This document shows, one piece after another, positions 11,027 to 28,331 of a DNA stretch of 64,000 bases. The DNA is from Pseudomonas sp. SORT22 (GTDB taxonomy: Bacteria; Pseudomonadota; Gammaproteobacteria; Pseudomonadales; Pseudomonadaceae), in the NCBI RefSeq assembly GCF_018417635.1, contig NZ_CP071007.1, positions 4,464,501 through 4,528,500 of the forward strand, given 5' to 3'. The stretch's first letter is position 1; every line of letters begins with the position of its first letter. The notes beneath the pieces were generated by a model. It had not been told where the DNA came from and did no database searches. It worked only from the letters and a program-made list of their open reading frames with translations. The position numbers were made by a program, and so were the translations under genes.

Positions 11027-11878
11027 ATGGCTGTGAAAGAGATGTACGCAATCCCCTCTCAATGGAATACGCCGCACTCCAAGGAAGACCTGGAGCCGAC
11101 CGAAATCGAATTTCGCAATGTCGGTAAATGCTTCCCGGCCAAGGGCAAGGCCGAGGCGCCCTTTGCCATTCGCGAGGTGAACTTCAAGATCCGCCGCGGC
11201 GAGGTGGTGTCGATCATCGGCCCGTCCGGTTGCGGCAAAAGCACCATCCTCAACATGGGCTCGGGCCTCTACCGCCCCAGCGAAGGCGAAGTTTTCGTCG
11301 GTGGCGAAGCGGTGGTCGGGCCGGTGCGCAAGGTCGCCTTCATGCTGCAGAAGGATCTTTTGATGCCCTGGCGCAGCATCCGCCGCAACGTCGAGCTGGG
11401 CCTGGAAATCCAGGGCATGCCCGCCGCCAAGCGCCAGCCGATTGCCGAAGATCTGCTCAATCGCTGCCACCTGCAAGGCTTTGCCGACCACTACCCGTTC
11501 CAGCTGTCGGGCGGCATGCGCCAGCGCGCCGCCCTGGCCCGGACCCTGGCCATCGACCCGCAGGTGCTGTTCCTCGACGAGCCGTTCTCGGCCCTCGATG
11601 CGCAGACCAAGATGATCCTGCAACAGGACCTGGCGCGGATGCTGTTCGAAGAAAAGAAAACCGCGCTGTTCATCACCCATGACCTGGTCGAGGCGATTGC
11701 CATGTCCGACCGCCTGCTGGTGATGAGCGCCCGCCCCGGCACCATCATCGAAGAAATCACTGTCGACCTGCCGTTTCGCGACAACCCGCTGGAGCGCCGC
11801 AAGCTGCCGGAAATCGGCCCGCTGGCCGGGCGCCTGATGGAACTGCTGAAAGTCGGCGAAGACACCGAACTGCATTGA
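11027..11878 (+). CDS. ABC transporter ATP-binding protein (nitrate/sulfonate/taurine type)
   Basis: ATPase of an importer, 283 aa, with Walker A (GPSGCGKST, residues 65-73), Q-loop in FMLQKDLLMPWRS, signature LSGGMRQRAALAR and Walker B VLFLDEPFSALD. It belongs to the SsuB/TauB/NrtD group that powers uptake of sulfonates, taurine, nitrate, thiamine precursors or aromatic acids. It is the first gene of the catabolic operon and pairs with the binding protein and permease that follow. An N-terminal extension of about 25 residues before the nucleotide-binding fold is slightly longer than usual. Confidence 0.92.
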   Translation: MAVKEMYAIPSQWNTPHSKEDLEPTEIEFRNVGKCFPAKGKAEAPFAIREVNFKIRRGEVVSIIGPSGCGKSTILNMGSGLYRPSEGEVFVGGEAVVGPVRKVAFMLQKDLLMPWRSIRRNVELGLEIQGMPAAKRQPIAEDLLNRCHLQGFADHYPFQLSGGMRQRAALARTLAIDPQVLFLDEPFSALDAQTKMILQQDLARMLFEEKKTALFITHDLVEAIAMSDRLLVMSARPGTIIEEITVDLPFRDNPLERRKLPEIGPLAGRLMELLKVGEDTELH

Positions 11879-11917
11879 TCAACGGCCACCGGCCCATCAA
11901 CCGATTCAGGAGTACGC

Positions 11918-12916
11918 ATGTTCAAGTCCCTGCAACGCCTGGCACAGGCTTCAGTCATCGCCCTGGGCCTTGGCCTGGCGCTCAGCGCCCAGGCAGAGCC
12001 GACCAAGGTCACCTACCTGCTGCCCGCGCCGCCCAACTCGCCGGCTTTTGCGCCGTGGATCATCGCCAAGGAAAAGGGCTACTACCGTGCCAGGGACCTG
12101 GACCTGACCTTCATCGCCGCCAAGGGCGGAGTCGATGTCGCCAAGCAGATCGGTGCCGGCAACGCCATGCTTGGCGGCGCCATCGGTGACACCCCGATCG
12201 TGGTCCGCGCCAACGGTATTCCGGTGCGTGCGGTGGCGGTGCTCGGTGCCGGCGGGGTGACCATGATCGCCACCAACGCCGGCGAGAACATCCAGTCGAT
12301 CAAGGACCTCAAGGGCAAGACCCTGACCGTGATGTCCTACTCCGACACCACCTACTACGCCCTGCTCGCCTCGCTGCGCAAGGCCGGCCTGAACAAGACC
12401 GACGTCGATATCCAGGCCGCCGGCCCCTCGGGGGTGTGGCAGCTGTTTTCAGCCAACAAGGCCCAGGCCATGGCCGGGGTGCCGGACTGGGTGGTGAATG
12501 CCGAAGAGGCCGGGCTGAAGATCAGCCTGATTCCGCAGAGCGAAATCTTCGAGAGCATGGCCCAGGCGATCCTCGCCTCGGACGACGCCATCAACAACCA
12601 GCCGCAGGTGGTCGGCGGCGTGGTCCAGGCCACCCTGCAGGGCATGCGCGACATCATCCAGGACCCGAAAGCCGCCGCCGCCACCTTCGCCAAGGCCGTG
12701 CCGGCCTACGCCGGCAAGGAAGCGGCGCTGGAGAAAACCTTGCGCCTGTATGTCGAGCACGTCTACGCCAACCAGACCGTGCTCGGGCGCATCGACCCGG
12801 CGCGCCTGGACGCAGTGCGCAAGTTCTACGTCAGCGAAGGCATCGTCGCCAAGGAACCCAAGCTCGACGAGCTCTACAGCAACCAGTTCATCGAAACCAC
12901 CACGGCCGCGCAATAA
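11918..12916 (+). CDS. ABC transporter periplasmic substrate-binding protein (NMT1/SsuA-like)
   Basis: Periplasmic binding protein of 332 aa with a Sec signal peptide (about 26 residues, ending ALSAQA) and a type 2 binding fold of the NMT1/THI5-like and SsuA group. The segment KGKTLTVMSYSDTTYYALLAS is the usual start of the second lobe. It selects the compound imported by this operon. The ligand cannot be named from sequence; related proteins bind aliphatic or aromatic sulfonates, pyrimidine precursors and aromatic acids. It lies 39 bp after the ATPase gene. Confidence 0.9.
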   Translation: MFKSLQRLAQASVIALGLGLALSAQAEPTKVTYLLPAPPNSPAFAPWIIAKEKGYYRARDLDLTFIAAKGGVDVAKQIGAGNAMLGGAIGDTPIVVRANGIPVRAVAVLGAGGVTMIATNAGENIQSIKDLKGKTLTVMSYSDTTYYALLASLRKAGLNKTDVDIQAAGPSGVWQLFSANKAQAMAGVPDWVVNAEEAGLKISLIPQSEIFESMAQAILASDDAINNQPQVVGGVVQATLQGMRDIIQDPKAAAATFAKAVPAYAGKEAALEKTLRLYVEHVYANQTVLGRIDPARLDAVRKFYVSEGIVAKEPKLDELYSNQFIETTTAAQ

Positions 12917-12945
12917 GCCTGGATGCATAACAAGGTATTAGCCCG

Positions 12946-13722
12946 ATGAGAAACCTCAACACCTCCGTGCTCGGCAGCGTCGCCCTGCTGATCCTGTTCC
13001 TGCTGCTCTGGCAGTGGGGCCCCGGCCTGCTCGGCATGCCCGAGTTCGTCATGCCGCAACTGAGCCGCGTGGCCCAGGAAAGCCTGGTGATGTGGCAGTC
13101 CAGCGGCCTGCTGCAGCACACCCTGATCACCGCCTTCGAGATCATCGTCGGCTTTGGCCTCGGCGCCCTGCTGGGCGTGGCCATCGGCGTGTCGCTGGGC
13201 CTGTCGCCGTCGGCCGAGGCCATGCTCTCGCCGTACATCCTGGCCCTGCAGATCGCCCCGAAAGTCGCCTTCGCGCCGCTGTTCGTGATGTGGCTGGGCT
13301 ACACCATCTACCCGAAGATCCTCATCGCCATCCTCATCGTGTTCTTCCCGGTGATGATCAACGTGCTCTCGGCAATCCGTACCGTTGACCCGGACATGAT
13401 CAACCTGGTGCGCACCATGAACGCCAGCCGCTGGCAGATCTTCCGCCTGGTGGAGTTCCCCTCGGCCATGGCCGCGCTGTTCTCGGGCCTGCGCATCGCC
13501 TCGACCCTGGCGGTGATCGGCGTCACCGTCGGCGAACTGGTCGGCGGCAACCAGGGCCTGGGCTTCCTGTTGGTCGACGCTGAAGGCCAGGGCAACACCG
13601 CCGGGGTCTTCGTCGCCATCGTCATGCTCACCCTGATCGGCGTGCTGGCCTACGGCGCGGTGGTCTGGGCCGAGAAACGCGTCCTGCACTACCTGCCCAA
13701 AGCCATGCTGAGTACCCAATGA
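12946..13722 (+). CDS. ABC transporter permease (SsuC/TauC type)
   Basis: Inner membrane permease of 258 aa with about six membrane helices. The cytoplasmic loop that contacts the ATPase is visible near residues 145-165 (INLVRTMNASRWQIFRLVEF, EAA-like). The gene follows the binding protein by 29 bp and overlaps the next gene by 4 bp (ATGA), which indicates translational coupling. Together the first three genes form a complete importer. Confidence 0.92.
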   Translation: MRNLNTSVLGSVALLILFLLLWQWGPGLLGMPEFVMPQLSRVAQESLVMWQSSGLLQHTLITAFEIIVGFGLGALLGVAIGVSLGLSPSAEAMLSPYILALQIAPKVAFAPLFVMWLGYTIYPKILIAILIVFFPVMINVLSAIRTVDPDMINLVRTMNASRWQIFRLVEFPSAMAALFSGLRIASTLAVIGVTVGELVGGNQGLGFLLVDAEGQGNTAGVFVAIVMLTLIGVLAYGAVVWAEKRVLHYLPKAMLSTQ

Positions 13723-14486
13723 TGAACCCATTCAAAACCATGCTTGAAGGCCGCCGCGTGCTGGTCACCGGTGGCGCCCGTGGCCTGGGCTATGCCTTCG
13801 CCCAGGCCATCGGCCAGGCCGGTGCCCGCGTGGTGATCGCCGATATTCTCCAGGAGCGCGTGCTGCAGGCCGCCTGCGAGCTGCGCGAGCAAGGCTTGCA
13901 GGTGACCGGCGTGACCCTCGACCTGGGCAACCCGGAGTCGATCACTGCCTGCGTCGCCGAGACAGTTGCCGAGCTCGGCGGCCTCGACGGCCTGGTCAAC
14001 AACGCCTCGATCACCAACTCCGGCGGCAAGACCTGCGAGCAACTGGACATCGACACCTGGGACCAGGTCATGCAGGTAAACGTGCGCGGCACCTGGCTGA
14101 TGACCCGCGCCTGCCTGCCGGCCCTGCGCGCCAGCGCCAAGGGCGCGGTGATCAACCTGGCCTCCGACACCCCGCTGTGGGGCGCACCGAACCTGCTGGC
14201 GTATGTCGCCAGCAAGGGCGCGATCATCGCCATGACCCGCAGCCTGGCCCGTGAACTTGGCACTGACAACATCACCGTCAATGCCATCGCCCCCGGCCTG
14301 GTGCTGGTCGAGGCCACCGCCTATGTGCCCGAGGCGCGCCACCGCCTGTACACCGAACAACGGGCGCTTCAGCGCCCGCAACTGCCAGAAGACGTCAGTG
14401 GCGCCGTGCTGTTTGCCCTGTCCGACCTGTCGCGTTTCATCACTGGACAAACCCTGCCGGTCAACGGCGGGTTCGTCATGCCTTGA
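13719..14486 (+). CDS. SDR family oxidoreductase, canonical catalytic site
   Basis: Short-chain dehydrogenase/reductase of 255 aa. Cofactor motif TGGARGLG, NNAS structural motif, and catalytic Ser (INLASDTP) plus Tyr and Lys of YVASKGA are all present. It probably oxidises or reduces an alcohol or dihydrodiol intermediate with NAD(P). Start overlaps the permease stop (ATGA). Because the operon encodes a Rieske oxygenase, a cis-dihydrodiol dehydrogenase role is possible, but a plain alcohol dehydrogenase role is equally consistent. Confidence 0.9.
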   Translation: MMNPFKTMLEGRRVLVTGGARGLGYAFAQAIGQAGARVVIADILQERVLQAACELREQGLQVTGVTLDLGNPESITACVAETVAELGGLDGLVNNASITNSGGKTCEQLDIDTWDQVMQVNVRGTWLMTRACLPALRASAKGAVINLASDTPLWGAPNLLAYVASKGAIIAMTRSLARELGTDNITVNAIAPGLVLVEATAYVPEARHRLYTEQRALQRPQLPEDVSGAVLFALSDLSRFITGQTLPVNGGFVMP

Positions 14487-14500: not shown

Positions 14501-15040
14501 ATGACCGACCTATCCGTACAAAACGCCACCGCGAAAACCTGGGAACAACCCGCAGGCTCGGACCTCGCTGGCTGGATGCAGACCCGCATCGCCCGCTACC
14601 AAACCCGCAAGTACGACTGGGACGCGCTGAAGTTCCAGGCCGACTTTGACCCCAAGTTCCGCCGCGCGCAAATGCGCTACGTCGGCACCGGCGGCACCGG
14701 GGTCAACAGCGACATGAACACCATCCCCTCGGAGCACTTCACCTTCTCGACCATGGTCATCCCGGCCGGTCATGAAGGCCCGCCGCATATCCATACCGAC
14801 GTCGAGGAAGTGTTCTTCGTGTTGCGCGGCAAGCTCAAGGTGATCATCGAGAAAGACGGCGAGCGCTTCGAAACCGTGCTCACCGACCGCGACCTGATTT
14901 CGGTACCGCCGGGCGTGTACCGCGAAGAGATCAACATCGGCGATGAAGACGCGCTGATGTGCGTGATGCTCGGCGCGAAAAAGCCGGTGACCCCGACCTA
15001 CCCGCCAGCGCACCCGCTGGCCTCGATCAAGCGCGGTTAA
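14501..15040 (+). CDS. Cupin domain protein
   Basis: Single-cupin protein of 179 aa. The first cupin motif is visible as GPPHIHTDVEEVFFVLRG, which supplies two His and a Glu metal ligand; the second motif runs through SVPPGVYREEINIGD. No classic second-motif His is obvious, so metal binding may be incomplete. Cupins in catabolic operons may be dioxygenases, isomerases or sugar-type epimerases; none can be assigned. The ATG at 14501 has a perfect AAGGAG site, which settles the start over an in-frame ATG at 14483. Confidence 0.85.
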   Translation: MTDLSVQNATAKTWEQPAGSDLAGWMQTRIARYQTRKYDWDALKFQADFDPKFRRAQMRYVGTGGTGVNSDMNTIPSEHFTFSTMVIPAGHEGPPHIHTDVEEVFFVLRGKLKVIIEKDGERFETVLTDRDLISVPPGVYREEINIGDEDALMCVMLGAKKPVTPTYPPAHPLASIKRG

Positions 15041-15044
15041 GCCG

Positions 15045-15914
15045 ATGTTGCACGCCACCGACCACTCGCTCGCCGGCCTTGCGGCCCAGTTGCAGCAGCG
15101 CTTCCCCCAGCGCCTGGTGCAACTGGCAAGCGGCGCCCAGGCGATCCGCGAAGCCGGGCACGGGCCGGCCATCGTGCTGTTGCATGGCATTGGCTCGGGC
15201 GCCGCGTCCTGGCTGCAGGTGGCGCTGCAACTGAGCCAGCACGCCCGGGTGATTGCCTGGGATGCACCGGGCTACGGCGACTCCAGCCCACTGGCCAACC
15301 CTGCGCCGCAGGCGGCGGACTATGCCCGGCGCCTGCGGCATTTGCTCGATGCGCTGCAGATTGACGACTGCCTGCTGGTCGGCCATTCCCTCGGTGCCCT
15401 CAGCGCCGCGGCCCTGGCCCAGCAGCAGCCGCAACGGGTGCGGCGCCTGGTGCTGATCAGCCCGGCTCGCGGCTATGGCGACCCGGCCCGTGCCGAGCAG
15501 GCGCAACAGGTGCGCAACCAGCGCCTGCACAACCTTGAGCAACTGGGCATCGCCCAGATGGCCAACCAGCGCAGCGCACACATGCTCTCGCCAGCGGCCA
15601 GCAGCGAAGCCCGCGCCTGGGTGCAATGGAACATGGCGCGGCTGCTGCCCCAGGGCTATCGCCAGGCCATCGAGTTGCTGTGTGGCGATGACCTGCTGCG
15701 CTACGCCGCCCTGGCCGTGCCGTGCGAAGTGCATTGCGGCGCCGCTGACAGCATCACCCTCCCCGAGGACTGCCAGGCCCTGGCCAAGGCCCTGGGGGCA
15801 GCGTTCGCGTTGATTGCCGAGGCCGGCCACGCCAGCCCGATCGAACAACCCGAGGCCGTGGCAAGCCTGCTTGCCCGGGCCCTCGAAGAATCCCTGACAG
15901 GTACTGCGCTATGA
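15045..15914 (+). CDS. Alpha/beta hydrolase (possible meta-cleavage product hydrolase)
   Basis: Alpha/beta-fold hydrolase of 289 aa. The oxyanion region is VLLHGIGSG, the nucleophile elbow GHSLGA and the C-terminal catalytic His sits in EAGHASPIEQPE. It resembles C-C bond hydrolases of aromatic meta-cleavage pathways as well as general esterases. With an extradiol-type dioxygenase in the same operon, hydrolysis of a ring-fission product is an attractive role, but this is inference. Its stop overlaps the IclR gene start by 4 bp. Confidence 0.85.
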   Translation: MLHATDHSLAGLAAQLQQRFPQRLVQLASGAQAIREAGHGPAIVLLHGIGSGAASWLQVALQLSQHARVIAWDAPGYGDSSPLANPAPQAADYARRLRHLLDALQIDDCLLVGHSLGALSAAALAQQQPQRVRRLVLISPARGYGDPARAEQAQQVRNQRLHNLEQLGIAQMANQRSAHMLSPAASSEARAWVQWNMARLLPQGYRQAIELLCGDDLLRYAALAVPCEVHCGAADSITLPEDCQALAKALGAAFALIAEAGHASPIEQPEAVASLLARALEESLTGTAL

Positions 15915-16738
15915 ATGATTCGGATCTGTTGAAAGACAACCAGGACAAGTACATCGTCCCCGGCCTTGAGCGCGGCCTGTTGCTGCTCTGTGAATTCAGC
16001 CGGCAAAACCGCACCCTCACCGCGCCGGAACTGGCGCGGCGCCTGGAGCTGCCGCGCTCGACCATCTTCCGCCTGTTGACCACCCTGGAAACCATGGGCT
16101 TCGTCACCCGCAGCGGCAACGAGTACCGCCTGGGCATGTCAGTACTGCGCCTGGGCTTCGAGTACCTGGCATCGCTGGAGCTGACCGAGCTCGGTCAGCC
16201 GCTGCTGGCGCGGCTGTGCGATCACCTTAATTACCCGAGCAACCTGGTGGTGCGTGACGGTCGCTCGATCGTCTACGTGGCCAAGGTTTCGCCGCCGTCG
16301 GTGTTCTCCAGCGCGGTCAACGTCGGCACCCGCCTGCCGGCCCACGCCACGGTGCTGGGGCGCATCCTCCTTGAAGACCTGAGCCTGGCCGAGCTGCGTG
16401 AGCTGTACCCGGAGGAGCACCTGGAACAGCACTCGCCGTGCACACCGAAAACCGTACTGGAGCTGTTCGACCTGGTGCAGAGCGACCGTCAGCGCGGCTA
16501 TGTCAGCGGCGAAGGTTTTTTCGAATCATCGATCTCGACCATCGCTGCGCCGGTGCGTGATCACAGTGGCCGGGTGGTTGCCGCCATGGGCGTGACCATC
16601 CCTACCGTGCAGGTTGCGCACATCAATTTCGACGGCCTGCTTGGCCATGTGCGGGGCAGCGCCGATGAGCTGTCGCGCCTGCTCAACTACACGCCAAACG
16701 CTGGCTCCGGCCGCGTCACCGCGCTGATGAGGGACTGA
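15911..16738 (+). CDS. IclR family transcriptional regulator
   Basis: DNA-binding regulator of 275 aa. The N-terminal winged helix-turn-helix (residues about 17-80, LTAPELARRLELPRSTIFRL) and C-terminal ligand-binding GAF-like domain (RDGRSIVYVAKV, ending with SISTIAAPVRDHSGRV) are typical. IclR proteins often control aromatic catabolism operons and bind palindromes of 14-20 bp. It lies inside the operon that it probably controls, so autoregulation is likely; the 20-bp palindrome at 10873 is the best candidate site. Confidence 0.93.
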   Translation: MNDSDLLKDNQDKYIVPGLERGLLLLCEFSRQNRTLTAPELARRLELPRSTIFRLLTTLETMGFVTRSGNEYRLGMSVLRLGFEYLASLELTELGQPLLARLCDHLNYPSNLVVRDGRSIVYVAKVSPPSVFSSAVNVGTRLPAHATVLGRILLEDLSLAELRELYPEEHLEQHSPCTPKTVLELFDLVQSDRQRGYVSGEGFFESSISTIAAPVRDHSGRVVAAMGVTIPTVQVAHINFDGLLGHVRGSADELSRLLNYTPNAGSGRVTALMRD

Positions 16739-16739: not shown

Positions 16740-17540
16740 ATGAGCAACCTCTATCAACTGCACGGGCGCACCGCCATCGTCACTGGCGGCTCTTCCGGGA
16801 TTGGCCTGGCCTGTGTCGAGCAACTGCTTGAAGCCGGTGCGGCAGTGGCCTTCTGTGGTCGCGATCAGGACCGCTTGAACAGCGCCGAAGCCCGCCTGCG
16901 CGAACGTTTCCCCGAAGCGCGTCTGTTGGCTCAAGCCTGCGATGTGCTGGATGCCGCGTCAGTCAACGCATTCGCTGCCGCCAGCCTGGCCGCCCTCGGC
17001 CCGGCCCAGGTGCTGATCAACAATGCCGGCCAAGGCCGGGTCTCGACCTTTGCCGACACCACTGATGAGGCCTGGAGCGAAGAGCTGCAGCTGAAGTTCT
17101 TCTCGGTGATCTACCCGGTGCGCGCCTTCCTCCCCCAACTGCAAGGCCAGGCCGGCGCTTCGATCGTCTGCGTCAACTCGCTGCTGGCCAGCCAGCCGGA
17201 GCCGCACATGGTCGCCACCTCGGCAGCACGTGCGGGCCTTAAGAACCTGGTGCGCTCGATGGCCACCGAGTTCGCCGAACAGGGCATCCGGGTCAACGGC
17301 ATCCTTATCGGCCTGGTCGAATCCGGCCAGTGGCGCCGGCGCTTCGAGGCCCGCGAAGAGCGCGATCTGGACTGGTCGCAATGGACCGCGCAACTGGCGC
17401 AACGCAAACACATTCCCCTGGGGCGCCTGGGCCTGCCCAAAGAAGCAGCCCAAGCGATCCTGTTCCTGGCTTCGCCCCTGTCGGCCTACACCACTGGCAG
17501 CCATATCGATGTTTCTGGAGGCCTGTCCCGCCATGCGTAA
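16740..17540 (+). CDS. SDR-fold protein with altered catalytic Tyr and Lys
   Basis: Short-chain dehydrogenase fold of 266 aa with an intact cofactor motif (TGGSSGIG) and NNAG. The catalytic region reads VNSLLASQPEPHMVATSAAR: the Ser is present, but the positions 13 and 17 residues after it, normally Tyr and Lys, are Thr and Arg. Canonical hydride-transfer chemistry is therefore unlikely or altered. It starts 2 nt after the IclR stop and overlaps the ThDP enzyme gene by 8 bp. It could be a non-redox SDR such as a lyase or isomerase, or a regulatory subunit. Confidence 0.88.
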   Translation: MSNLYQLHGRTAIVTGGSSGIGLACVEQLLEAGAAVAFCGRDQDRLNSAEARLRERFPEARLLAQACDVLDAASVNAFAAASLAALGPAQVLINNAGQGRVSTFADTTDEAWSEELQLKFFSVIYPVRAFLPQLQGQAGASIVCVNSLLASQPEPHMVATSAARAGLKNLVRSMATEFAEQGIRVNGILIGLVESGQWRRRFEAREERDLDWSQWTAQLAQRKHIPLGRLGLPKEAAQAILFLASPLSAYTTGSHIDVSGGLSRHA

Positions 17541-21530: not shown

Positions 21531-22492
21531 GCGTATTGGGCATCGATGAAGTCACCTACGGCGTCGAAGACCTCGACACCTGCGTGCGCTTCTTCAGCGA
21601 CTGGGGCCTGGACAAGGTCAGCGAACAGGCCGACGAGGTGGTCTTCGAAACCCTCAACGGCTGCCGGGTGGTACTGGCCGACATCAACAAGCCCGGCCTG
21701 CCAGCGGCGATCGAGCCGGGCTCGACCGTGCGTGAAGTGGTCTGGGGCGTGGAAAGCGAAGCGGACCTCGCCCTGTACAGCCAGCGCATCGCCAACGACC
21801 CGGGCTTTGTCGAAGGCAACGGGCGCATCGGCTGCACCGACCCCAACGGCCTGGCGATCCGCCTGCAGGTGACCCGCAAGCGCGCACTGGACATCGAGTG
21901 CAGCGGCCACAACACCTGGCAGACCAAGGGCCGGATCAACAAGCCGGCGCCGGTGTATGAGCGCGCCACGCCGATCGAAGTCGGCCACGTGGTGTTCTTC
22001 GTCAAGGATGTGAATGCCTGCGAAGCCTTCTACCACGAGCGCTTCGGCTTCCAGGCCTCGGACCGCTATCCCAACCGCGGCGCGTTCCTGCGCACCGCCG
22101 AAGAAGGTGGCCACCACGATTTGTTCATGCTCCAGCTGCCGGCCCCCCGCGCCGGTCTGAACCACGTCGCCTTCACCGTGCGCGACCTGCACGAAGTGTT
22201 CGGCGGCGGCATGCACATCTCGCGCAGTGGCTGGGCCACCGAGATCGGCCCGGGCCGCCACCCGGTGTCGTCGGCGTTCTTCTGGTACTTCAAGAACCCG
22301 GCCGGCGCCCTGGTCGAGTATTACGCCGACGAAGACCAGCTGACCGGCGAATGGCAACCGCGCGAGTTCGAGCCGGGCCCGACGGTGTTTGCCGAATGGG
22401 CGATTGCCGGCGGCATCGATGGCAATACCCGGCGCCAGCAGCATGTCGAGGCGCCGCAAGGCAAGTTCCTTACCGACAAACCCAAACCCTGA
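21527..22492 (+). CDS. VOC family extradiol-type dioxygenase
   Basis: Two-domain vicinal oxygen chelate protein of 321 aa. The 2-His-1-carboxylate iron triad of extradiol dioxygenases can be placed at His154 (EVGHVVFFVKD), His213 (GLNHVAFTVRD) and Glu264 (ALVEYYADED). These positions are close to those of the biphenyl-diol dioxygenase BphC (146, 210, 260 by memory). This supports meta-cleavage of a dihydroxylated ring. The start overlaps the ALDH stop by 4 bp. A glyoxalase-type role is less likely given the length and the spacing of the ligands. Confidence 0.88.
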   Translation: MSVLGIDEVTYGVEDLDTCVRFFSDWGLDKVSEQADEVVFETLNGCRVVLADINKPGLPAAIEPGSTVREVVWGVESEADLALYSQRIANDPGFVEGNGRIGCTDPNGLAIRLQVTRKRALDIECSGHNTWQTKGRINKPAPVYERATPIEVGHVVFFVKDVNACEAFYHERFGFQASDRYPNRGAFLRTAEEGGHHDLFMLQLPAPRAGLNHVAFTVRDLHEVFGGGMHISRSGWATEIGPGRHPVSSAFFWYFKNPAGALVEYYADEDQLTGEWQPREFEPGPTVFAEWAIAGGIDGNTRRQQHVEAPQGKFLTDKPKP

Positions 22493-22505: not shown

Positions 22506-23648
22506 ATGTCTTCGTTGAACATCGCCATCAACGGTGCCGGCATCGGCGGCCTCACCGCCGCCATCGCCCTGCGCCAGGCCGGTCACCAGGTCACGGTTTT
22601 CGAACAGTCCAAGGCGTTTTTGCGGGTCGGTGCCGACATCAACCTCACCCCCAACGCCGTGCGCGCCCTCGATGGCCTCGGCGTCGGCCCGGCGGTGCGC
22701 ATTCCGGCCGCGCGCCCGACCCACCGCATCAGCCGTATGTGGGACACAGGCGAAGAAACCTCGCGCTTGGAAATGGCCGACGCCGCGCAAAGCCAGTACG
22801 GCGCACCGCAATTGACCATTCACCGCGCCGACCTGCTGGCGGCCCTGGCCGATGTGTTCCCGCTGCACAACGTGCAGTTCGCCAAGCGCGCCGAGCAGGT
22901 GCTGCAGGATGCCGATGGCGTCGAGCTGCGCTTCAAGGATGGCAGCCGCCATCGCGCCGACCTGCTTGTCGGCGCCGACGGCATTCACTCGGTGGTGCGC
23001 AATGCCCTGTTTGGTGAAGAGCAGCCGCGCTTTACCGGCGTGGTCGCCTACCGCGCCGTGGTCCCGGCCGAGCGTGTAGCGCATGTACCGAACATCCAGG
23101 CCTTCACCAAATGGTGGGGCCCCAACCCGCAGAGCCAGATCGTCACCTTCCCGCTGAACCAGGGCCGCGACATCTTCATCTTCGCCACCACCGCCCAGGA
23201 CAGCTGGCACCTGGAGTCCTGGACCACTGCTGGCGACGCCGCCGAGCTGCGCAGTCACTACCAGGACTTCCACGCCGACGCCCGGGCGCTGCTCGACGCC
23301 TGCGACGAAGTCCTCAAGACCGCACTGTACGAGCGTGACCCGCTGCCGTACTGGTCCGAAGGCGCGATCACCCTGCTCGGTGACGCCTGCCACCCGATGA
23401 TGCCGTTCATGGCCCAGGGCGCCGGCCAGGCCATCGAAGACGCGGTGGTGCTGGCCCGTCATCTGCACGGTGTCACCAGCCCGGCGCAGATCGCCAGCGC
23501 CCTGCAGGGTTACCAACGGTCGCGCCTGGAGCGCACCAGCCAGATCCAGATCGGTTCACGCGGCAACCAGTGGCTCAAGGCCGGCGGCAATGCCGACTGG
23601 GTCTATGGCTACGACGCCTGGACCGTGCCTACCGCCAGCGCTGCCTGA
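22506..23648 (+). CDS. Class A FAD-dependent aromatic monooxygenase
   Basis: Flavoprotein hydroxylase of 380 aa like salicylate hydroxylase or 6-hydroxynicotinate 3-monooxygenase. It shows the N-terminal FAD motif AINGAGIGGLTAA, the DG motif in LLVGADGIHSVVRN and the second FAD motif GDACHPMMPFMAQGAGQA. It should hydroxylate, and possibly decarboxylate, a phenolic or hydroxypyridine ring using NAD(P)H. The ATG at 22506 is preceded by CAGGAG. Combined with the VOC protein it could generate and then open a diol or hydroxylated heteroaromatic ring. Confidence 0.9.
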   Translation: MSSLNIAINGAGIGGLTAAIALRQAGHQVTVFEQSKAFLRVGADINLTPNAVRALDGLGVGPAVRIPAARPTHRISRMWDTGEETSRLEMADAAQSQYGAPQLTIHRADLLAALADVFPLHNVQFAKRAEQVLQDADGVELRFKDGSRHRADLLVGADGIHSVVRNALFGEEQPRFTGVVAYRAVVPAERVAHVPNIQAFTKWWGPNPQSQIVTFPLNQGRDIFIFATTAQDSWHLESWTTAGDAAELRSHYQDFHADARALLDACDEVLKTALYERDPLPYWSEGAITLLGDACHPMMPFMAQGAGQAIEDAVVLARHLHGVTSPAQIASALQGYQRSRLERTSQIQIGSRGNQWLKAGGNADWVYGYDAWTVPTASAA

Positions 23649-23657: not shown

Positions 23658-23975
23658 ATGAGCGAGACGATGCAACTGACGGTGGTGCTCAGGCACGACC
23701 AGTCGAAGAACCTGGAACAGATCCAGGCGCACATGAAGCAGATGGGCTGGTGGGACAGCTTCCCGCCGGCCGGCGTCGAGCTGGTGTCCTGGACCGTGGC
23801 CATGGGCCTGGGCCAGATCGTCACCCTGCGCCTGCCGCCGAGCCTGCTCGGCAAGGTCAATGTGGAACTGGAGCGCGCCGCCTGGGGCGTGTTCCGCACC
23901 GAATGCTACCCGACGTACGACTTTGTCCCGGTCCGCGAAATGATCCGCGAACGGGTTCGCAATGGAGGTCAATGA
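23658..23975 (+). CDS. Small conserved hypothetical protein of Rieske operons, 105 aa
   Basis: Soluble 105-aa protein starting MSETMQLTVVLRHDQSKN. The alternating beta and alpha pattern and length suggest a ferredoxin-like (dimeric alpha-beta barrel) fold, as in muconolactone isomerase-like or NIPSNAP proteins, but no signature was recognised. The C-terminal AWGVFRTECYPTYDF looks like a conserved family motif. It sits between the FAD monooxygenase and the 75-aa HTH-like protein with gaps of 9 and 1 bp, so it belongs to the oxygenase module. Function is unknown. Confidence 0.7.
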   Translation: MSETMQLTVVLRHDQSKNLEQIQAHMKQMGWWDSFPPAGVELVSWTVAMGLGQIVTLRLPPSLLGKVNVELERAAWGVFRTECYPTYDFVPVREMIRERVRNGGQ

Positions 23976-23976: not shown

Positions 23977-24204
23977 ATGAGCAACACCCCACGCTACCTG
24001 GAGCCCCATCAGGCGCGCAAACGGCCCAACACCCCGTTCGAGGAACTGCTCGGCGATTCCATCGAGCGCGCCTACGGCAACGGCATCACCCAGCTGCCCG
24101 AGCTGCTGGCGCACCTGAACCTGGCCGGGCCGCCTTGCCCCTTGACCCGCGGCGAGTGGACCGAAGACTCCTATAAAACCCTGATGGCGCGGCTGGGCGC
24201 ATGA
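23977..24204 (+). CDS. Recombinase-like helix-turn-helix domain small protein, 75 aa
   Basis: Protein of 75 aa (MSNTPRYLEPHQARKRPNTP start, WTEDSYKTLMARLG end). This resembles the small recombinase-like helix-turn-helix family that I recall lying next to Rieske oxygenase genes; the family name is from memory. A role as an oxygenase accessory subunit fits as well as DNA binding. The ATG at 23977 is chosen because GGAGGT lies 7 nt upstream; the in-frame ATG at 23962 would place that site inside the gene. Confidence 0.7.
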   Translation: MSNTPRYLEPHQARKRPNTPFEELLGDSIERAYGNGITQLPELLAHLNLAGPPCPLTRGEWTEDSYKTLMARLGA

Positions 24205-24224: not shown

Positions 24225-25256
24225 ATGAATATGCAATTCACCGTCGATCCTGTTGAGAACCACCTGGCCAACGGCCTCAAAGACCTCTGGTTTCCCGTAT
24301 TGCCCTCCGGGCTGCTTGGCGACAAGCCGCTGTCGGTGCGCCGCCTGGGCTACAAGATCGCCCTGTGGCGCGACAACGATGGCAGCGTGCATGCCCTCGA
24401 AGACCACTGCCCGCATCGCGGCGCGCCGCTGTCCCAGGGCCCGGTGCTGGGCGACCGCCTGCAGTGCCCGTACCACGGCGTCGAAGTGCGCTGCGACGGC
24501 ACCGTGACCAAGGTCCCCGGCAGCCCTGGCTGCAAGCTCGAAGGCAGCCGCCCGACGCGCATGTTCCACACCCGCGAGGCGGCCGGGGCGATCTTTTTGT
24601 TCAACGCCACCGACCCGCACCTGGACACCCCGCCAGAGCTGGTGCTGCCCGAGCAACTGACCTCGCCCGAGTGGAGCAGCTTCCTCTGCTACACCGAGTG
24701 GCAAGGTGACTACCGCTACGTGCTCGACAACGTCATGGACCCGATGCACGGCACCTACCTGCACAAGATGTCGCACTCGATGAGCGAAGGCGAAGCCACC
24801 GCCAAGTTCGTCACCCGCGATACCGAACAGGGCTTCTTTTTCGAGAAGGAAGGCCAGCGCGGGGTCAACTTCGACTGGACCGAATTCCTCGACAACGGCT
24901 GCCACTGGCTGCGCCTGGAAATCCCTTACCCGAAGACCGGCGGCCCGGGCGGCAACTTCACCATCATCGGCAGCTACACCCCGAGCAGCCGCAGCCTCTC
25001 GGCAGTGTTCCACTGGCGCGCCCGGCCCCTGACCGGCTGGCAGCGCGACACCTGGCGCTTCCTCTACAAGAACCGCCTGGAAGCCCGCCACTGGGCAGTG
25101 CTGGAGCAGGACCGGGTGCTGCTGGAGTTCATGGAGTACGACGCCAACCAGCGCGAGAACCTCTATCAGCATGACCTCGGTGTGGTGCGCCTGCGCCGCT
25201 ACCTCAAGGGCAAGGCCAAGGAGCAACTGGCGCTGATCGAAGCGAAGCAACTGTGA
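24225..25256 (+). CDS. Rieske non-heme iron oxygenase, alpha subunit
   Basis: Terminal oxygenase of 343 aa. The Rieske [2Fe-2S] ligands are Cys62, His64 (HCPHRGAPLS) and Cys81, His84 (CPYHGVEV). The mononuclear iron site is DNVMDPMHGTYLH with Asp172, His175 and His180. The short length and lack of a beta subunit place it with the vanillate demethylase/phthalate dioxygenase (class IA) group, which use a PDR-type reductase such as the one encoded two genes downstream. Reactions include ring hydroxylation, O- or N-demethylation and deamination. Confidence 0.94.
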   Translation: MNMQFTVDPVENHLANGLKDLWFPVLPSGLLGDKPLSVRRLGYKIALWRDNDGSVHALEDHCPHRGAPLSQGPVLGDRLQCPYHGVEVRCDGTVTKVPGSPGCKLEGSRPTRMFHTREAAGAIFLFNATDPHLDTPPELVLPEQLTSPEWSSFLCYTEWQGDYRYVLDNVMDPMHGTYLHKMSHSMSEGEATAKFVTRDTEQGFFFEKEGQRGVNFDWTEFLDNGCHWLRLEIPYPKTGGPGGNFTIIGSYTPSSRSLSAVFHWRARPLTGWQRDTWRFLYKNRLEARHWAVLEQDRVLLEFMEYDANQRENLYQHDLGVVRLRRYLKGKAKEQLALIEAKQL

Positions 25257-25693
25257 TGAACCTGCCCGTGCACCGTATCCAGGCACAGGCGGTGACCGAG
25301 CTGGCCACTGCCAGCTGGTCCAACGCCCTGCTGCTGGGCAACGAGCTGGTGATGTCCGGCATGACCGGCCATCCCGCCACCCGCCAGGCCACCGAGGGCG
25401 GCGCGCCGCTGGATGCCTACGCGCAGACCCTGGTGGTACTGAACAAGATCCGCGCCCTGGTGGAAGCGGCAGGCGGGCACATCGGCAATCTCTACCGCTT
25501 GACGCTGTACCTCACCGACATTGCCGACAAGGATGAAGTCGCTCGCGCCCGCCGCGACTTCTTCCAAGGCTTTGCCTGCTACCCCACCTCCACCCTGGTT
25601 CAGGTGAGCGCCCTGGTGTTCCCCGAACTGGTGGTGGAAATCGAAGCCAGCGCCCGGCTCGACATTGACTTGCGCACTGCGCCCTTGAGGTGA
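25256..25693 (+). CDS. RidA/YjgF family protein (possible 2-aminomuconate-type deaminase)
   Basis: RidA-fold protein of 145 aa. Usual RidA proteins hydrolyse enamines or imines using a conserved Arg near the end of the fold; here that region reads YPTSTLVQVSALVFPELVVE and the Arg appears to be missing. This fits the wider YjgF group that includes 2-aminomuconate deaminase. In an operon for a nitrogen-containing aromatic it may hydrolyse an enamine ring-fission product. The ATG at 25256 overlaps the Rieske stop by one base. Confidence 0.85.
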   Translation: MNLPVHRIQAQAVTELATASWSNALLLGNELVMSGMTGHPATRQATEGGAPLDAYAQTLVVLNKIRALVEAAGGHIGNLYRLTLYLTDIADKDEVARARRDFFQGFACYPTSTLVQVSALVFPELVVEIEASARLDIDLRTAPLR

Positions 25694-25696
25694 CCG

Positions 25697-26656
25697 ATGT
25701 CCAACTCCTCTACCATTACCGCGCTGGTGCACACCCTGCGCCACGAAGCCGAAGGCATCATCAGCGTCGAACTGCGCCCCTGGGGCGACACCGTGTTCGC
25801 GCCGTTCGAAGCCGGCTCGCACATCGATCTGCACCTGCCCAATGGCCTGGTGCGCAGCTACTCACTGCTCAACTCGCCGAGCGACCAGGGCCGTTATGTA
25901 GTCGGCATTCTGCGCGATCGTAACAGCCGCGGCGGCTCGGCGTTCGTCCATGAGCAACTGCGGGTTGGCACGCAACTGCACATCTCGCAACCACGCAACA
26001 ACTTCGCCCTCGACCCGCACGCCAGCCACAACGTGCTGGTGGCCGGCGGCATCGGCATCACGCCGATCTACTGCATGTTTCGCCAGCTGCTGGCGCTGGG
26101 CAAATCCGCCGAGCTGATCTACTGCGCCCGCTCGCGCAAGGAAGCGGCGCTGCTGGAAGAGCTCAGCGGGGTCGATGCCAAGGTGCTCTACCATTTCAAC
26201 GACGAGAAGAACGCGGCACCTGACCTGACCCATTACCTGGCCGGGCAGCCCGGCGATACGCACTTCTACTGCTGCGGCCCGACGCCGATGCTCGATGCCT
26301 TCGAGAGCACCTGCGAAAGCCTCGGTTACCCTCATGCGCATATCGAACGCTTCACCGCCGCCGAACTGCCACCCTCGGAAGATGCCCAGGACAGCTACAG
26401 CGTCGAGCTGAAAAAGTCCGGCAAGACCCTGAATGTCGAGCCTGGGCTGAACCTGCTCGACGTGCTGCTCGAAGCCGGCTGCGATATCGAGTACAGCTGC
26501 CGCGAAGGGGTGTGCGGCTCGTGCGAAACCCGGGTGCTGGAAGGTGACATCGACCACCGCGATGGCGTGCTGACCAAGGCCGAACGGGCGGCGAACACAT
26601 CGATGATGGTCTGTGTCTCGGGCTGCAAGAGCCGGCGCATGGTGCTTGATCTGTAA
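25697..26656 (+). CDS. PDR/VanB family oxidoreductase, reductase for the Rieske oxygenase
   Basis: Electron transfer protein of 319 aa with a flavin-binding domain (RSYSLLNSP), an NAD-binding domain (VLVAGGIGITPIYCM, CCGPTPML) and a C-terminal plant-type [2Fe-2S] ferredoxin domain with the cluster ligands in SCREGVCGSCET and MVCVS. It passes electrons from NAD(P)H to the Rieske oxygenase two genes upstream. It is the last gene before an intrinsic terminator. Confidence 0.94.
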   Translation: MSNSSTITALVHTLRHEAEGIISVELRPWGDTVFAPFEAGSHIDLHLPNGLVRSYSLLNSPSDQGRYVVGILRDRNSRGGSAFVHEQLRVGTQLHISQPRNNFALDPHASHNVLVAGGIGITPIYCMFRQLLALGKSAELIYCARSRKEAALLEELSGVDAKVLYHFNDEKNAAPDLTHYLAGQPGDTHFYCCGPTPMLDAFESTCESLGYPHAHIERFTAAELPPSEDAQDSYSVELKKSGKTLNVEPGLNLLDVLLEAGCDIEYSCREGVCGSCETRVLEGDIDHRDGVLTKAERAANTSMMVCVSGCKSRRMVLDL

Positions 26657-26677
26657 CTGTTGCAACACGCGCAATTG

Positions 26678-26706
26678 GCCGGCACCGGGTGTGCCGGCTT
26701 TTTTTT
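26678..26706 (+). terminator. Intrinsic terminator of the catabolic operon
   Basis: Perfect 8-bp stem GCCGGCAC/GTGCCGGC with a 5-nt loop (CGGGT), followed by a run of eight T (26699-26706). It lies 22 bp after the reductase stop codon and ends the 15.6-kb operon, leaving the porin as a separate transcript. Confidence 0.92.
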
Positions 26707-26869
26707 GCGCGGCTTTCGCAGGTCCGGCGGCCCCAGAACAGTCAATTACTTATTCATTGATAAAACAACCCACGCACTGTCAACGCGCGCTGTGCAGTTA
26801 AACCGCACTGCCATTGCCCACCCCTGTTACTTAAACACCACGCTGTTTCACCCACGGCACGAATTAAGG

Positions 26870-26884
26870 TGTTTCAGATATAAA
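26870..26884 (+). promoter_or_regulatory. Operator-like half-site ahead of the porin gene
   Basis: TGTTTCAGATATAAA matches 14 of 15 positions of TGTTTCATATATAAA in the palindrome at 10873, which precedes the catabolic operon. Another TGTTTCA occurs at 26843-26851. Sharing this sequence suggests that one regulator, likely the IclR protein of the operon, controls both units. Confidence 0.45.
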
Positions 26885-26931
26885 TAATTGTTTTACATCA
26901 TATTTATTAAAACACCAGTCACTCATCAGCA

Positions 26932-26948
26932 CTGGCACAGTTCCTGCT
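26932..26948 (+). promoter_or_regulatory. Candidate sigma-54 promoter of the porin gene
   Basis: CTGGCACAGTTCCTGCT has a perfect TGGCAC -24 half and TGC in the -12 half, with the GG and GC doublets 10 nt apart. Transcription would start near 26959, leaving a leader of about 140 nt that holds the second CACCTATAAAACA copy. Confidence 0.5.
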
Positions 26949-26982
26949 CTTTACCTCTCGAGTTCAAATAAAAACAACGTGC

Positions 26983-26995
26983 CACCTATAAAACA
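26983..26995 (+). repeat. CACCTATAAAACA repeat, copy 2
   Basis: Exact match to 10996-11008 ahead of the catabolic operon. It lies 107 bp before the porin start codon. Both copies have a nearby TTCAAATAAAA upstream (10939 and 26963), so the two control regions share several short elements. Confidence 0.45.
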
Positions 26996-27101
26996 ATAAC
27001 AAACCTACCGATGCGCCACCGCTGACTTTCGCTTAACGCCTGATTCCAGGCGGCGGACAGCTGTTGCCCAGAGAAACTGCTCAACCTTGCGGGGCATTGA
27101 T

Positions 27102-28331
27102 ATGAACAAGTACGTGATAAGCCTGGGCCTGATCCTTGGCAGCGCCACCAGTTTCGCTTCCGAGCCCGGCCCGGCGGCGCCGGACCAGCCGCCAGCGCTG
27201 AAAAAACCCTTCCCGCACATTGCCTGGCGCAGTGACGACGGCCAGAGTTCGCTGGATATCGGCGGCGCGCTGCGGGTCAACTACCGCGATGAGCACTGGG
27301 ACACCACCGAAAACAACGGGCGCTTTCTCTTCGACACCTTTCGCCTGGATGTCCAGGCCACCCACAAGCAACTGTTCAGCGACATCGGCTACTGGTTCCA
27401 GGACGACGGCAAGCGCTCGATCGACCGCGGCTACGTCGGTTATCGCTTCAATGCCAATTCCAACGTGCAACTGGGCGCACCGTTCAAACCCTTTGGCCTT
27501 GAGCCCTACCCGCAGTTCGGCTGGAGTTACCACATCCCGTTTTTCATGGGCTATGGCGTCAGCGCCGGCAGCGGCCTGAAGTACAGCTACAAGGACAAGG
27601 ACTGGGACCTGCAACTGGGGTACTTCCCGCGCATGCTGCCCAGCGGCATCCGCTACTCGCCAGAAGTCGGCCGTTACAGCGATCTTGACGACAACGCCGT
27701 GGCCTTCACCCAGTCACGCCAGGACAACGAGAAGCGCAACCAGGTCAACGCCCGGGTGGCCCGGACCTTCAGCGGTGACGGCTGGAAAACCGAAATCGGC
27801 GCCTCGCTGGCCGCAGCCGAGCTGTACAACGCCACCACCCGTGACGATGGCGACTACTGGGCCGGCGGCGTGCATGCGATCGTCAACGCCGGCAACTGGA
27901 CGGTTACCAGCCAGGCGATTCGCTACGAATACGATCCGAAGAACCCCGACGGCGTCAGCAACGACTCGGTGCTGATGGGCGGCAACGGCCTGACCCCGGC
28001 CTACCTGATCGCCTCCAAGGCCACCATCGGCTCGATCAACGTCGGCTACGACATCTTCACCCCGGGCCTTGGCCAGTTGAAGAAGATCAAGGTCTACAAC
28101 GACTACAGCCGCATGATGAAAGACAAAAGCGGCTGGGATGACTCGCAGATGTTTACCGTCGGCGCGCAGTTTTTGGCCATGCCGATCATGGCCTGGGTCG
28201 ACTTCACCTGGGCGAAGAACGCCAACCCCTTTGGCGGCGCCGAGAACGGCACGGGCTGGACCAGCACCAACTCGGTCGGCAGCAACGACTGGTACTACCG
28301 CACCAACATCAACATCGGCTACTACTTCTGA
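27102..28331 (+). CDS. Outer membrane porin linked to the catabolic operon
   Basis: Beta-barrel porin of 409 aa with a signal peptide (MNKYVISLGLILGSATSFAS). The mature chain has alternating amphipathic strands rich in Tyr, Trp and Asp and ends in an aromatic residue (NINIGYYF), as outer membrane proteins do. It resembles the OprO/OprP or carbohydrate-porin group more than OprD. Position after the operon and the shared control elements suggest that it admits the operon's substrate through the outer membrane. The ATG at 27102 is preferred over an in-frame codon at 27087. Confidence 0.87.
   Translation: MNKYVISLGLILGSATSFASEPGPAAPDQPPALKKPFPHIAWRSDDGQSSLDIGGALRVNYRDEHWDTTENNGRFLFDTFRLDVQATHKQLFSDIGYWFQDDGKRSIDRGYVGYRFNANSNVQLGAPFKPFGLEPYPQFGWSYHIPFFMGYGVSAGSGLKYSYKDKDWDLQLGYFPRMLPSGIRYSPEVGRYSDLDDNAVAFTQSRQDNEKRNQVNARVARTFSGDGWKTEIGASLAAAELYNATTRDDGDYWAGGVHAIVNAGNWTVTSQAIRYEYDPKNPDGVSNDSVLMGGNGLTPAYLIASKATIGSINVGYDIFTPGLGQLKKIKVYNDYSRMMKDKSGWDDSQMFTVGAQFLAMPIMAWVDFTWAKNANPFGGAENGTGWTSTNSVGSNDWYYRTNINIGYYF

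What the first reader, a model, noticed from the sequence alone, without database searches (positions are those of the whole stretch)
11027..28331. Large operon plus porin for an unidentified (N-hetero)aromatic compound
Seventeen co-oriented genes with overlaps or very short gaps end at a strong terminator and are followed by a porin with shared control elements. Contents form a full route: ABC import, Rieske oxygenase plus PDR reductase, class A FAD monooxygenase, VOC protein with the complete 2-His-1-Glu extradiol triad, alpha/beta hydrolase, RidA-type deaminase candidate, aldehyde dehydrogenase, AspDH-like protein and a ThDP enzyme. The RidA and AspDH-like members point to a nitrogen-containing substrate. 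From memory, P. aeruginosa PAO1 has a partly similar gene order around PA3504-PA3514 with no assigned substrate; the oxygenase half here seems to be an extension.
Basis: partly seen in the sequence, partly recalled or inferred. Interest (0 to 1): 0.78.

Follow-up and report, generated by a model that had tools for sequence, protein, structure and literature searches.

The report
Likely kynurenic acid degradation operon
This Pseudomonas carries a conserved block of genes that best fits the complete breakdown route for kynurenic acid, a tryptophan waste product whose bacterial degradation was worked out chemically in the 1960s but, as far as I could find, has not been tied to genes.

Summary
In detail: 18 (not 17) co-oriented, tightly packed genes at 11027-26656 end at a strong terminator and are followed by a porin. 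They form one pathway: the same core (10 genes plus a varying redox partner) recurs in shuffled order in Oceanobacter, Caballeronia, Acinetobacter, Klebsiella and Streptomyces, and where the two blocks lie apart the genome usually holds both (7 of 9). Catalytic residues are intact. FAD monooxygenase M is optional; N and the RidA protein Q form a second option, together or absent in 59 of 59 Pseudomonas-type loci. So RidA is a poor nitrogen clue; the conserved aspartate dehydrogenase is better. Best explanation: catabolism of kynurenate (4-hydroxyquinoline-2-carboxylate). The core enzymes match, step for step, the 1960s route as I recall it. A quercetinase-like cupin and a hydrolase would then split the pyridine ring into 2-oxoglutarate and iminosuccinate, which aspartate dehydrogenase uses. 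The substrate is inferred: no kynurenine-pathway gene was found beside the cluster, and this genome lacks tryptophan 2,3-dioxygenase and kynureninase. Ten paper searches found no gene assignment.

The parts
11027..11878 (+). gene A: ABC transporter ATPase
   Evidence: by eye, ABC motifs in the sequence; orthologue over 60% identity in 7 Pseudomonadaceae and 3 Oceanobacter loci
11918..12916 (+). gene B: periplasmic binding protein, NMT1/THI5-like
   Evidence: weak match to an ABC binding protein and THI5
12946..13722 (+). gene C: ABC permease (by eye)
13719..14486 (+). gene D: classical SDR (YxxxK); proposed dihydrodiol dehydrogenase; directly follows the Rieske gene in Acinetobacter, Klebsiella, Caballeronia NK8, Cupriavidus and (by annotation) Pseudosulfitobacter
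14501..15040 (+). gene E: cupin; nearest solved structure by sequence is quercetinase QueD; H96, H98, E102/E103, R141 in 70 of 70; proposed ring-opening dioxygenase
15045..15914 (+). gene F: alpha/beta hydrolase, S115-D235-H262 in 74 of 74; proposed amide hydrolase
15911..16738 (+). gene G: IclR regulator, PcaR/PcaU/PobR-like (177 bits, below that family's cut-off of 285)
16740..17540 (+). gene H: atypical SDR (NF005468), catalytic Tyr-xxx-Lys replaced by Thr/Ser-xxx-Arg; proposed side-chain C=C reductase
17533..19215 (+). gene I: ThDP-dependent enzyme (NF005470, 867 bits, cut-off 495); proposed 2-oxo-acid decarboxylase
19226..20029 (+). gene J: aspartate dehydrogenase (NF009827, 451 bits, cut-off 226), H220 in 79 of 79
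20040..21530 (+). gene K: aldehyde dehydrogenase, N153/E251/C285 in 82 of 82
21527..22492 (+). gene L: VOC extradiol dioxygenase, H154/H213/E264 in 88 of 88; proposed 8,8a-dioxygenase
22506..23648 (+). gene M: class A FAD monooxygenase, nearest solved NicC and tropone monooxygenase; optional module
23658..23975 (+). gene N: 105-aa protein without Pfam family, predicted beta-alpha-beta-beta-alpha-beta-alpha order; optional, always with Q in 59 of 59 Pseudomonas-type loci
23977..24204 (+). gene O: 75-aa HTH_62 protein (PF20552), found in 79 of 80 loci (the exception, L083, starts at the Rieske gene)
24225..25256 (+). gene P: Rieske oxygenase, C62/H64/C81/H84 and D172/H175/H180/D296 in 91 of 91; proposed kynurenate 7,8-dioxygenase
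25256..25693 (+). gene Q: RidA-family protein; optional, always with N in 59 of 59 Pseudomonas-type loci
25697..26656 (+). gene R: PDR/VanB-type reductase with C-terminal 2Fe-2S domain
26677..26699 (+). terminator-like hairpin followed by a T run
27102..28331 (+). gene S: outer-membrane porin (by eye; no NCBIfam match at E 1e-30)
10996..11008 (+). CACCTATAAAACA, first of two exact copies in the window, upstream of gene A
26983..26995 (+). CACCTATAAAACA, second copy, upstream of the porin

Best explanation
The block is a complete uptake and breakdown pathway for kynurenate (4-hydroxyquinoline-2-carboxylate). Shown: the gene set, kept active-site residues and a conserved core found across phyla. 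Inferred: substrate and step order. Proposed steps. Porin S and ABC system A-C import. Rieske P with reductase R makes the 7,8-cis-dihydrodiol. SDR D oxidises it to 7,8-dihydroxykynurenate. VOC dioxygenase L cuts the 8,8a bond, giving a pyridine with an unsaturated 2-oxo-acid side chain. Atypical SDR H saturates the chain. ThDP enzyme I decarboxylates it to the aldehyde. ALDH K oxidises that to 5-(2-carboxyethyl)-4,6-dihydroxypicolinate. Cupin E opens this enolised 1,3-dicarbonyl ring between C4 and C5. Hydrolase F splits the resulting amide into 2-oxoglutarate and aminofumarate/iminosuccinate. Aspartate dehydrogenase J reduces iminosuccinate to L-aspartate; RidA Q, where present, can instead hydrolyse it to oxaloacetate and ammonia. 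G is the regulator, O a small companion of the oxygenase without an assigned step. M and N/Q are optional side modules, perhaps for hydroxylated analogues such as xanthurenate (M) and for the imine (Q).
For: One pathway: core D, E, F, H, I, J, K, L, O, P plus a redox partner (R, or ferredoxin and FAD reductase) is contiguous but reshuffled in Oceanobacter (L080), Streptomyces chartreusis (K L J F E D H I R O P), A. baumannii, Klebsiella, Caballeronia NK8 and Pseudosulfitobacter (by annotation). Where a Rieske locus shows no J in the stretch (9 of the 21 loci L078-L098), 7 of those 9 genomes hold I and J elsewhere at 54-59%, side by side in 6. Active sites kept: P 91/91, L 88/88, F 74/74, K 82/82, J 79/79, I 78/79, E 70/70. 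Every core enzyme gets one step of the route as I recall it; only O has none. Route intermediates are named in print: 7,8-dihydroxykynurenate and 5-(3'-carboxy-3'-oxopropyl)-4,6-dihydroxypicolinate in a metabolite table (PMC11364965), 5-(2'-carboxyethyl)-4,6-dihydroxypicolinate as a tryptophan/kynurenine metabolite (PMC10543884, PMC12007202) (passages). Pseudomonas extracts turn kynurenate into L-glutamate, alanine and acetate (title of Hayaishi 1961 in the reference list of PMC5770815): 2-oxoglutarate plus aspartate would give glutamate by transamination. Cupin E is nearest to the ring-cleaving quercetinase QueD by sequence (ranks 4-5 by fold with a modest model, pLDDT 71.5). In Oceanobacter an aspartate ammonia-lyase (NF008909 726 bits, cut-off 510; TIGR00839 654, cut-off 681) follows the ThDP gene (L080), as expected if aspartate is a product. 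AspDH relatives of 42-43% also sit in Phaeobacter and Ensifer clusters with kynureninase and 3-hydroxyanthranilate dioxygenase.
Against: No experiment. No tryptophan 2,3-dioxygenase or kynureninase in this genome, and no relative of TDO, kynureninase or 3-hydroxyanthranilate dioxygenase in any core-cluster locus held (136 loci, 157; hits only in the TDO loci and in the Phaeobacter and Ensifer loci). Association with TDO is weak: 7 of 14 Rieske-positive against 33 of 185 Rieske-negative Pseudomonas genomes (Fisher one-sided p 0.009, uncorrected for kinship); kynureninase is in the same 7 of 14 against 37 of 185; salicylate monooxygenase shows none (1 of 14 against 19 of 185), but BenA-like oxygenases are also somewhat enriched (12 of 14 against 111 of 185, p 0.047). 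The core is not always contiguous: 9 of the 21 loci L078-L098 show no I or J (four of them full 21-kb stretches), and 2 of those 9 genomes (metagenome bins by their titles) show neither at all. O was not detected in the Cupriavidus locus L113. The step order from the 1960s is my recall of KEGG and titles; the original papers are not held. Cupin chemistry is a guess: the usual last histidine is R141. SDR H lacks the catalytic Tyr-Lys pair, so its redox role is uncertain. The historical kynurenate user Pseudomonas acidovorans (now Delftia; recalled) did not appear among the named hits, which list only the best 120 each.
Confidence: 0.57

Rival explanations
1. Same chemistry, different primary substrate: another quinoline-2-carboxylate such as xanthurenate, quinaldate or a plant or microbial 4-quinolone-2-carboxylate; kynurenate at most an intermediate or side substrate.
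For: The genome has no TDO or kynureninase; the optional FAD monooxygenase (29 of 59 loci) could add a hydroxyl to a related ring; the iminosuccinate logic needs only a pyridine ring with 2-carboxylate and oxygenated C4.
Against: The core without M, N, Q (17 of 59 loci, and the Acinetobacter and Klebsiella clusters) already matches the kynurenate route; no extra hydroxylase for quinaldate (a molybdenum enzyme, recalled) lies in the cluster.
Confidence: 0.2
2. A nitrogen-free or differently built aromatic acid is degraded by ordinary meta-cleavage (hydroxylation, extradiol cleavage, hydrolase), with ThDP enzyme and ALDH for a side chain; aspartate dehydrogenase only balances oxaloacetate and ammonia.
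For: Gene families are generic; the VOC profile is nearest to homoprotocatechuate and catechol 2,3-dioxygenases; hydrolase F scores nearest to PcaD models among NCBIfam.
Against: Aspartate dehydrogenase is in 58 of 59 Pseudomonas-type loci (the exception's stretch starts at K), in 12 of 21 others and elsewhere in 7 of the remaining 9 genomes, and in the distant clusters, which an anaplerotic role does not need; I saw none of the usual meta-pathway hydratase or aldolase families among the genes scanned.
Confidence: 0.15
3. Two separate pathways sharing one promoter: A-K for one substrate, L-R for another.
For: Recalled: PAO1 is said to hold only the A-K part (PA3504-PA3514; not examined here). 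In 9 of the 21 loci L078-L098 the L-O-P-R block and a K-J-I block lie on opposite strands, and in 9 others no K-J-I block is within the stretch.
Against: The 8 extended Pseudomonadaceae loci carry both halves; in Streptomyces, Acinetobacter, Klebsiella, Oceanobacter and Caballeronia the genes of the halves are interleaved in one run; 7 of the 9 genomes with a bare oxygenase block hold I and J elsewhere.
Confidence: 0.05

Closest known systems
Kynurenate (quinoline) pathway of Pseudomonas, Hayaishi, Taniuchi and co-workers 1961-63 (EC 1.14.99.2, 1.3.1.18, 1.13.11.10; EC numbers and step order recalled)
   Same: Each core enzyme class matches one step, ending in a pyridine propionate and amino-acid products.
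   Different: Known as enzyme activities only, as far as I recall and could find; ring opening after 5-(2-carboxyethyl)-4,6-dihydroxypicolinate is not assigned that I know of; no genes were given in the papers seen.
Nicotinate degradation (nic cluster, NicC)
   Same: M is nearest among solved structures to NicC (275 bits), and the logic 'oxygenase ring opening, then alpha/beta hydrolase on the amide' is the same (recalled).
   Different: Positions differ from NicC (His to Asn in AGIHIGPN/ADINLTPN, Cys to Phe in EPCVKWW/QAFTKWW, His to Phe in KPHMAQGA/MPFMAQGA); none of the 18 genes is a Mo-hydroxylase; M is optional.
A. baumannii kynurenine (kynU/kynB) cluster, PMC9162365 (passages and outline seen)
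   Same: Also breakdown of tryptophan-derived kynurenines.
   Different: Goes through anthranilate; a different gene set from the Rieske cluster seen in A. baumannii here (L110).
Recalled PAO1 PA3504-PA3514
   Same: The recalled gene order equals A-K of this cluster.
   Different: A search for three of its locus tags listed 8 papers (at least one unrelated) and no function in the listing; none was opened.

Membership tests
Kynurenate 7,8-/8,8a- pathway | NADH-dependent ring dihydroxylating oxygenase with reductase | tested here: met
   P and R present; Rieske and iron ligands in 91 of 91; activity untested
Kynurenate 7,8-/8,8a- pathway | dihydrodiol dehydrogenase gene | tested here: met
   classical SDR D in the core, next to the Rieske gene in several genera; activity untested
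Kynurenate 7,8-/8,8a- pathway | iron extradiol dioxygenase | tested here: met
   L with H154/H213/E264 in 88 of 88, also kept in the Streptomyces copy; activity untested
Kynurenate 7,8-/8,8a- pathway | 2-oxo-acid decarboxylase and aldehyde dehydrogenase for the side chain | tested here: met
   I and K in the core, catalytic residues kept; activity untested
Kynurenate 7,8-/8,8a- pathway | enone reductase for the side chain | tested here: inconclusive
   only candidate is SDR H, which lacks the Tyr-Lys pair
Kynurenate 7,8-/8,8a- pathway | acts on kynurenate | not testable with these tools
   needs growth tests or enzymes
Kynurenate 7,8-/8,8a- pathway | link to kynurenine-forming genes | tested here: inconclusive
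   own genome has neither TDO nor kynureninase; none beside core loci; weak genus-wide association with TDO, 7/14 against 33/185
6-hydroxynicotinate 3-monooxygenase (NicC), for gene M | NicC active-site residues (which ones matter is recalled) | tested here: not met
   three positions differ in the alignment
Aspartate dehydrogenase, for gene J | score over the curated cut-off and catalytic His | tested here: met
   NF009827 451.4 against 226 bits; H220 in 79 of 79 (that it is the catalytic His is recalled)
Quercetinase-type cupin dioxygenase, for gene E | 3-His-1-Glu metal site (recalled) | tested here: not met
   H96, H98 and E102/E103 present, last position R141 in 70 of 70; so 'works like' only

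The most novel reading that the evidence does not exclude
This cluster is the long-missing gene set of the whole bacterial kynurenate pathway, from Rieske 7,8-dioxygenase to a new ring-opening end in which a cupin dioxygenase and an alpha/beta hydrolase turn 5-(2-carboxyethyl)-4,6-dihydroxypicolinate into 2-oxoglutarate and iminosuccinate, the latter captured by aspartate dehydrogenase; it spans Actinomycetota to Proteobacteria, including Acinetobacter and Klebsiella, which could therefore remove host-derived kynurenate.
Probability: 0.4. Interest if true: 0.82.

Novelty: new variant of a known kind. Interest (0 to 1): 0.68.

Why it matters
If right, it gives genes to several enzymes known, as far as I recall, only as activities for 60 years and closes the quinoline branch of tryptophan breakdown in bacteria. 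Kynurenate is a neuroactive and immunoactive metabolite, and the same core cluster is present in Acinetobacter baumannii and Klebsiella records, so it would show which bacteria can consume it. It also offers a new use of aspartate dehydrogenase and a cupin in opening a pyridine ring.

Tried and rejected
RidA as the key to nitrogen: rejected as a main clue, because Q is absent from 22 of 59 Pseudomonas-type loci and no RidA gene is annotated in the Acinetobacter and Klebsiella stretches. M as a NicC: rejected on three active-site positions. Nicotinate, picolinate, indole-acetate (iac) and flavonoid routes: considered from memory and set aside because the hallmark genes I recall are not among the 18; not tested further. 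Two-pathway reading: weighed down by interleaved gene orders and by genomes that hold both blocks apart. Glutaryl-CoA genes next to the Pseudosulfitobacter cluster: the CoA-transferase and acyl-CoA dehydrogenase there score far below the glutarate-family cut-offs (275 against 750, 230 against 470 bits), so not used as evidence. Fold of N: ferredoxin-like order of elements, but no Foldseek hit at E 0.001 or better, so no function. RNA families: none at gathering score in 10000-29000. In one search the set for gene D is mixed: 31 of its 81 rows lack the Tyr-Lys pair and are probably the paralogue H from loci where D lies outside the stretch, so no count is quoted for D. In one search several rows were read in a wrong frame (L114 P, D, E, J; L109 P; L112 D; L135 D, H, J; probably also L114 H) and are not used. 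A first TDO query failed and was redone.

Full report
What is there. The window is part of a 5.80-Mb single-contig genome; the nearest named Rieske loci are from P. wadenswilerensis, P. rubra and P. alkylphenolica (98-99%), so it is taken as a Pseudomonas. Eighteen genes on the + strand, A to R, fill 11027-26656 with overlaps or gaps of at most 39 bases, then a strong hairpin with a T run at 26677-26699, then a porin at 27102-28331. The flanks look unrelated: aceK and an EamA transporter upstream, EamA, an Asp/Asn hydroxylase-like gene and cysK downstream.

One pathway. The genome-contig scan with the Rieske protein kept the best 80 of 273 relatives. In the 59 Pseudomonas-type loci (L019-L077) the order is the same as far as the stretch reaches, apart from missing optional genes and M lying after the porin in L077. 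ThDP gene I is in 9 of 148 sampled Pseudomonadaceae genomes, our own included; the 8 others were extended: 7 show A to S and the eighth, whose stretch ends in B, shows B to S, with M in 3 of 8 and N/Q in 7 of 8. In Oceanobacter L080 the order is G A B C D L M N O P Q R E F H J K I. In Acinetobacter baumannii, Klebsiella and Caballeronia NK8 the Rieske is only 52-54% identical and lies with a separate ferredoxin and FAD reductase, yet SDR, VOC, cupin, hydrolase, second SDR, aspartate dehydrogenase, ALDH and ThDP genes are all there. Streptomyces chartreusis has K L J F E D H I R O P in one run. Pseudosulfitobacter has the same set by annotation. Cupriavidus L113 has F P D E G H I J K L R; O was not detected. 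In 12 of the 21 other loci (L078-L098) K, J and I are within the stretch, on the opposite strand in 9; in the other 9 they are not, but 7 of those 9 genomes hold I and J elsewhere at 54-59%, side by side in 6; two metagenome bins show neither. A gene set that survives reshuffling, a change of redox partner and separation in the genome is one pathway. It is not common: 14 of 199 Pseudomonas genomes have the Rieske gene at E 1e-50, and 2 of 274 Gammaproteobacteria have the VOC gene at E 1e-60, our own and one at 38% identity.

Core and options. Over 59 Pseudomonas-type loci N and Q are together (37) or both missing (22) without exception; M is present in 29; all four combinations occur (24 M+N+Q, 13 N+Q, 5 M only, 17 none). 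So there are two optional modules on a fixed core. O is found in 79 of 80 loci; the exception begins at the Rieske gene.

Active sites. Exact counts from the alignments: Rieske C62, H64, C81, H84 and D172, H175, H180, D296 in 91 of 91; VOC H154, H213, E264 in 88 of 88 (and in the Streptomyces copy); hydrolase S115, D235, H262 in 74 of 74; ALDH N153, E251, C285 in 82 of 82; ThDP E54 in 78 of 79 (one gap); aspartate dehydrogenase H220 in 79 of 79; cupin H96, H98, E102, E103, R141 in 70 of 70. SDR H has Thr or Ser at position 160 (69 and 7 of 76) and Arg at 164 (75 of 76), where the classical Tyr and Lys stand, a conserved oddity.

What it does. The conserved aspartate dehydrogenase suggests that the pathway releases iminosuccinate or aspartate. 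A carbon skeleton that would give iminosuccinate (N, C-COOH, CH, C-O) is the pyridine half of 4-hydroxyquinoline-2-carboxylate, kynurenate. From memory (KEGG tryptophan map), kynurenate is dihydroxylated at 7,8, dehydrogenated, cleaved at 8,8a, its 2-oxo-propenyl side chain reduced, decarboxylated to a formylethyl group and oxidised to a carboxyethyl group. The core holds a candidate for each: P+R, D, L, H, I, K. What is left are cupin E, hydrolase F, aspartate dehydrogenase J and the small protein O, and what is left of the substrate is 5-(2-carboxyethyl)-4,6-dihydroxypicolinate, an enolised 1,3-dicarbonyl. The cupin is nearest to quercetinase QueD in sequence. Oxygenation between C4 and C5 would give an amide of 2-oxoglutarate with aminofumarate; hydrolysis gives 2-oxoglutarate and iminosuccinate; J makes aspartate. 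An aspartate ammonia-lyase gene follows the ThDP gene in Oceanobacter L080. The 1961 report title names L-glutamate as a product (seen in the reference list of PMC5770815), which transamination would give. This ring-opening end is my proposal.

Literature. Ten searches of the held library (one search was not run) listed no paper that I recognised as assigning genes to kynurenate breakdown. What I saw: passages of PMC11354673, PMC5770815 (one section in full) and PMC5610271, which between them cite Hayaishi 1961, Horibata 1961, Taniuchi and Hayaishi 1963 and Dagley and Johnson 1963; passages of PMC11364965, PMC10543884, PMC12007202 and PMC12795275 that name pathway intermediates; passages and outline of PMC9162365, whose A. 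baumannii kynurenine cluster is a different one. All other papers were seen as listings only. The original papers are not held. Subscription papers are mostly outside the library, so an assignment in print elsewhere cannot be ruled out.

Against. The genome lacks TDO and kynureninase at the thresholds used, so kynurenate would have to come from outside. TDO is somewhat more frequent in Rieske-positive Pseudomonas (7 of 14 against 33 of 185, p 0.009) and kynureninase is in the same 7 of 14 (37 of 185 of the rest), salicylate monooxygenase is not enriched (1 of 14 against 19 of 185), BenA-like oxygenases slightly (12 of 14 against 111 of 185, p 0.047); none is corrected for kinship, so I count this as inconclusive. 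No TDO, kynureninase or 3-hydroxyanthranilate dioxygenase relative adjoins a core-cluster locus held. Aspartate dehydrogenase relatives do occur near kynureninase in Phaeobacter and Ensifer plasmids, but in another pathway.

Verdict.

Noticed in passing
P0004: A 432-aa Pseudomonas aeruginosa protein record carries both the RidA and Rieske domains (77% to gene P); may be a true Q-P fusion or a read-through of neighbouring genes.
   Followed up: no
window 16740-17540 and orthologues: SDR with Thr/Ser-xxx-Arg in place of Tyr-xxx-Lys in nearly all of 76 aligned sequences.
   Followed up: partly
window 23977-24204: HTH_62 small protein is a near-constant neighbour of this Rieske family, also in Acinetobacter, Klebsiella and Caballeronia; it may be an oxygenase accessory rather than a DNA-binding protein.
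   Followed up: partly
L133:10581-22745, L134:4443-10789: Phaeobacter and Ensifer plasmids combine kynureninase, 3-hydroxyanthranilate 3,4-dioxygenase, a dihydrodipicolinate-synthase-like protein, a semialdehyde dehydrogenase and an aspartate dehydrogenase: another possible unassigned kynurenine-derived pathway ending in aspartate.
   Followed up: no
L136:10666-36760 (Caballeronia sp. NK8 pNK84): Two copies of the ferredoxin-HTH_62-Rieske unit about 21 kb apart on one plasmid, the second with its own ThDP and VOC genes.
   Followed up: no
window 35188-39320, - strand: 5-oxoprolinase/urea-amidolyase-related gene near an aromatic-acid/H+ symporter-family MFS gene.
   Followed up: no
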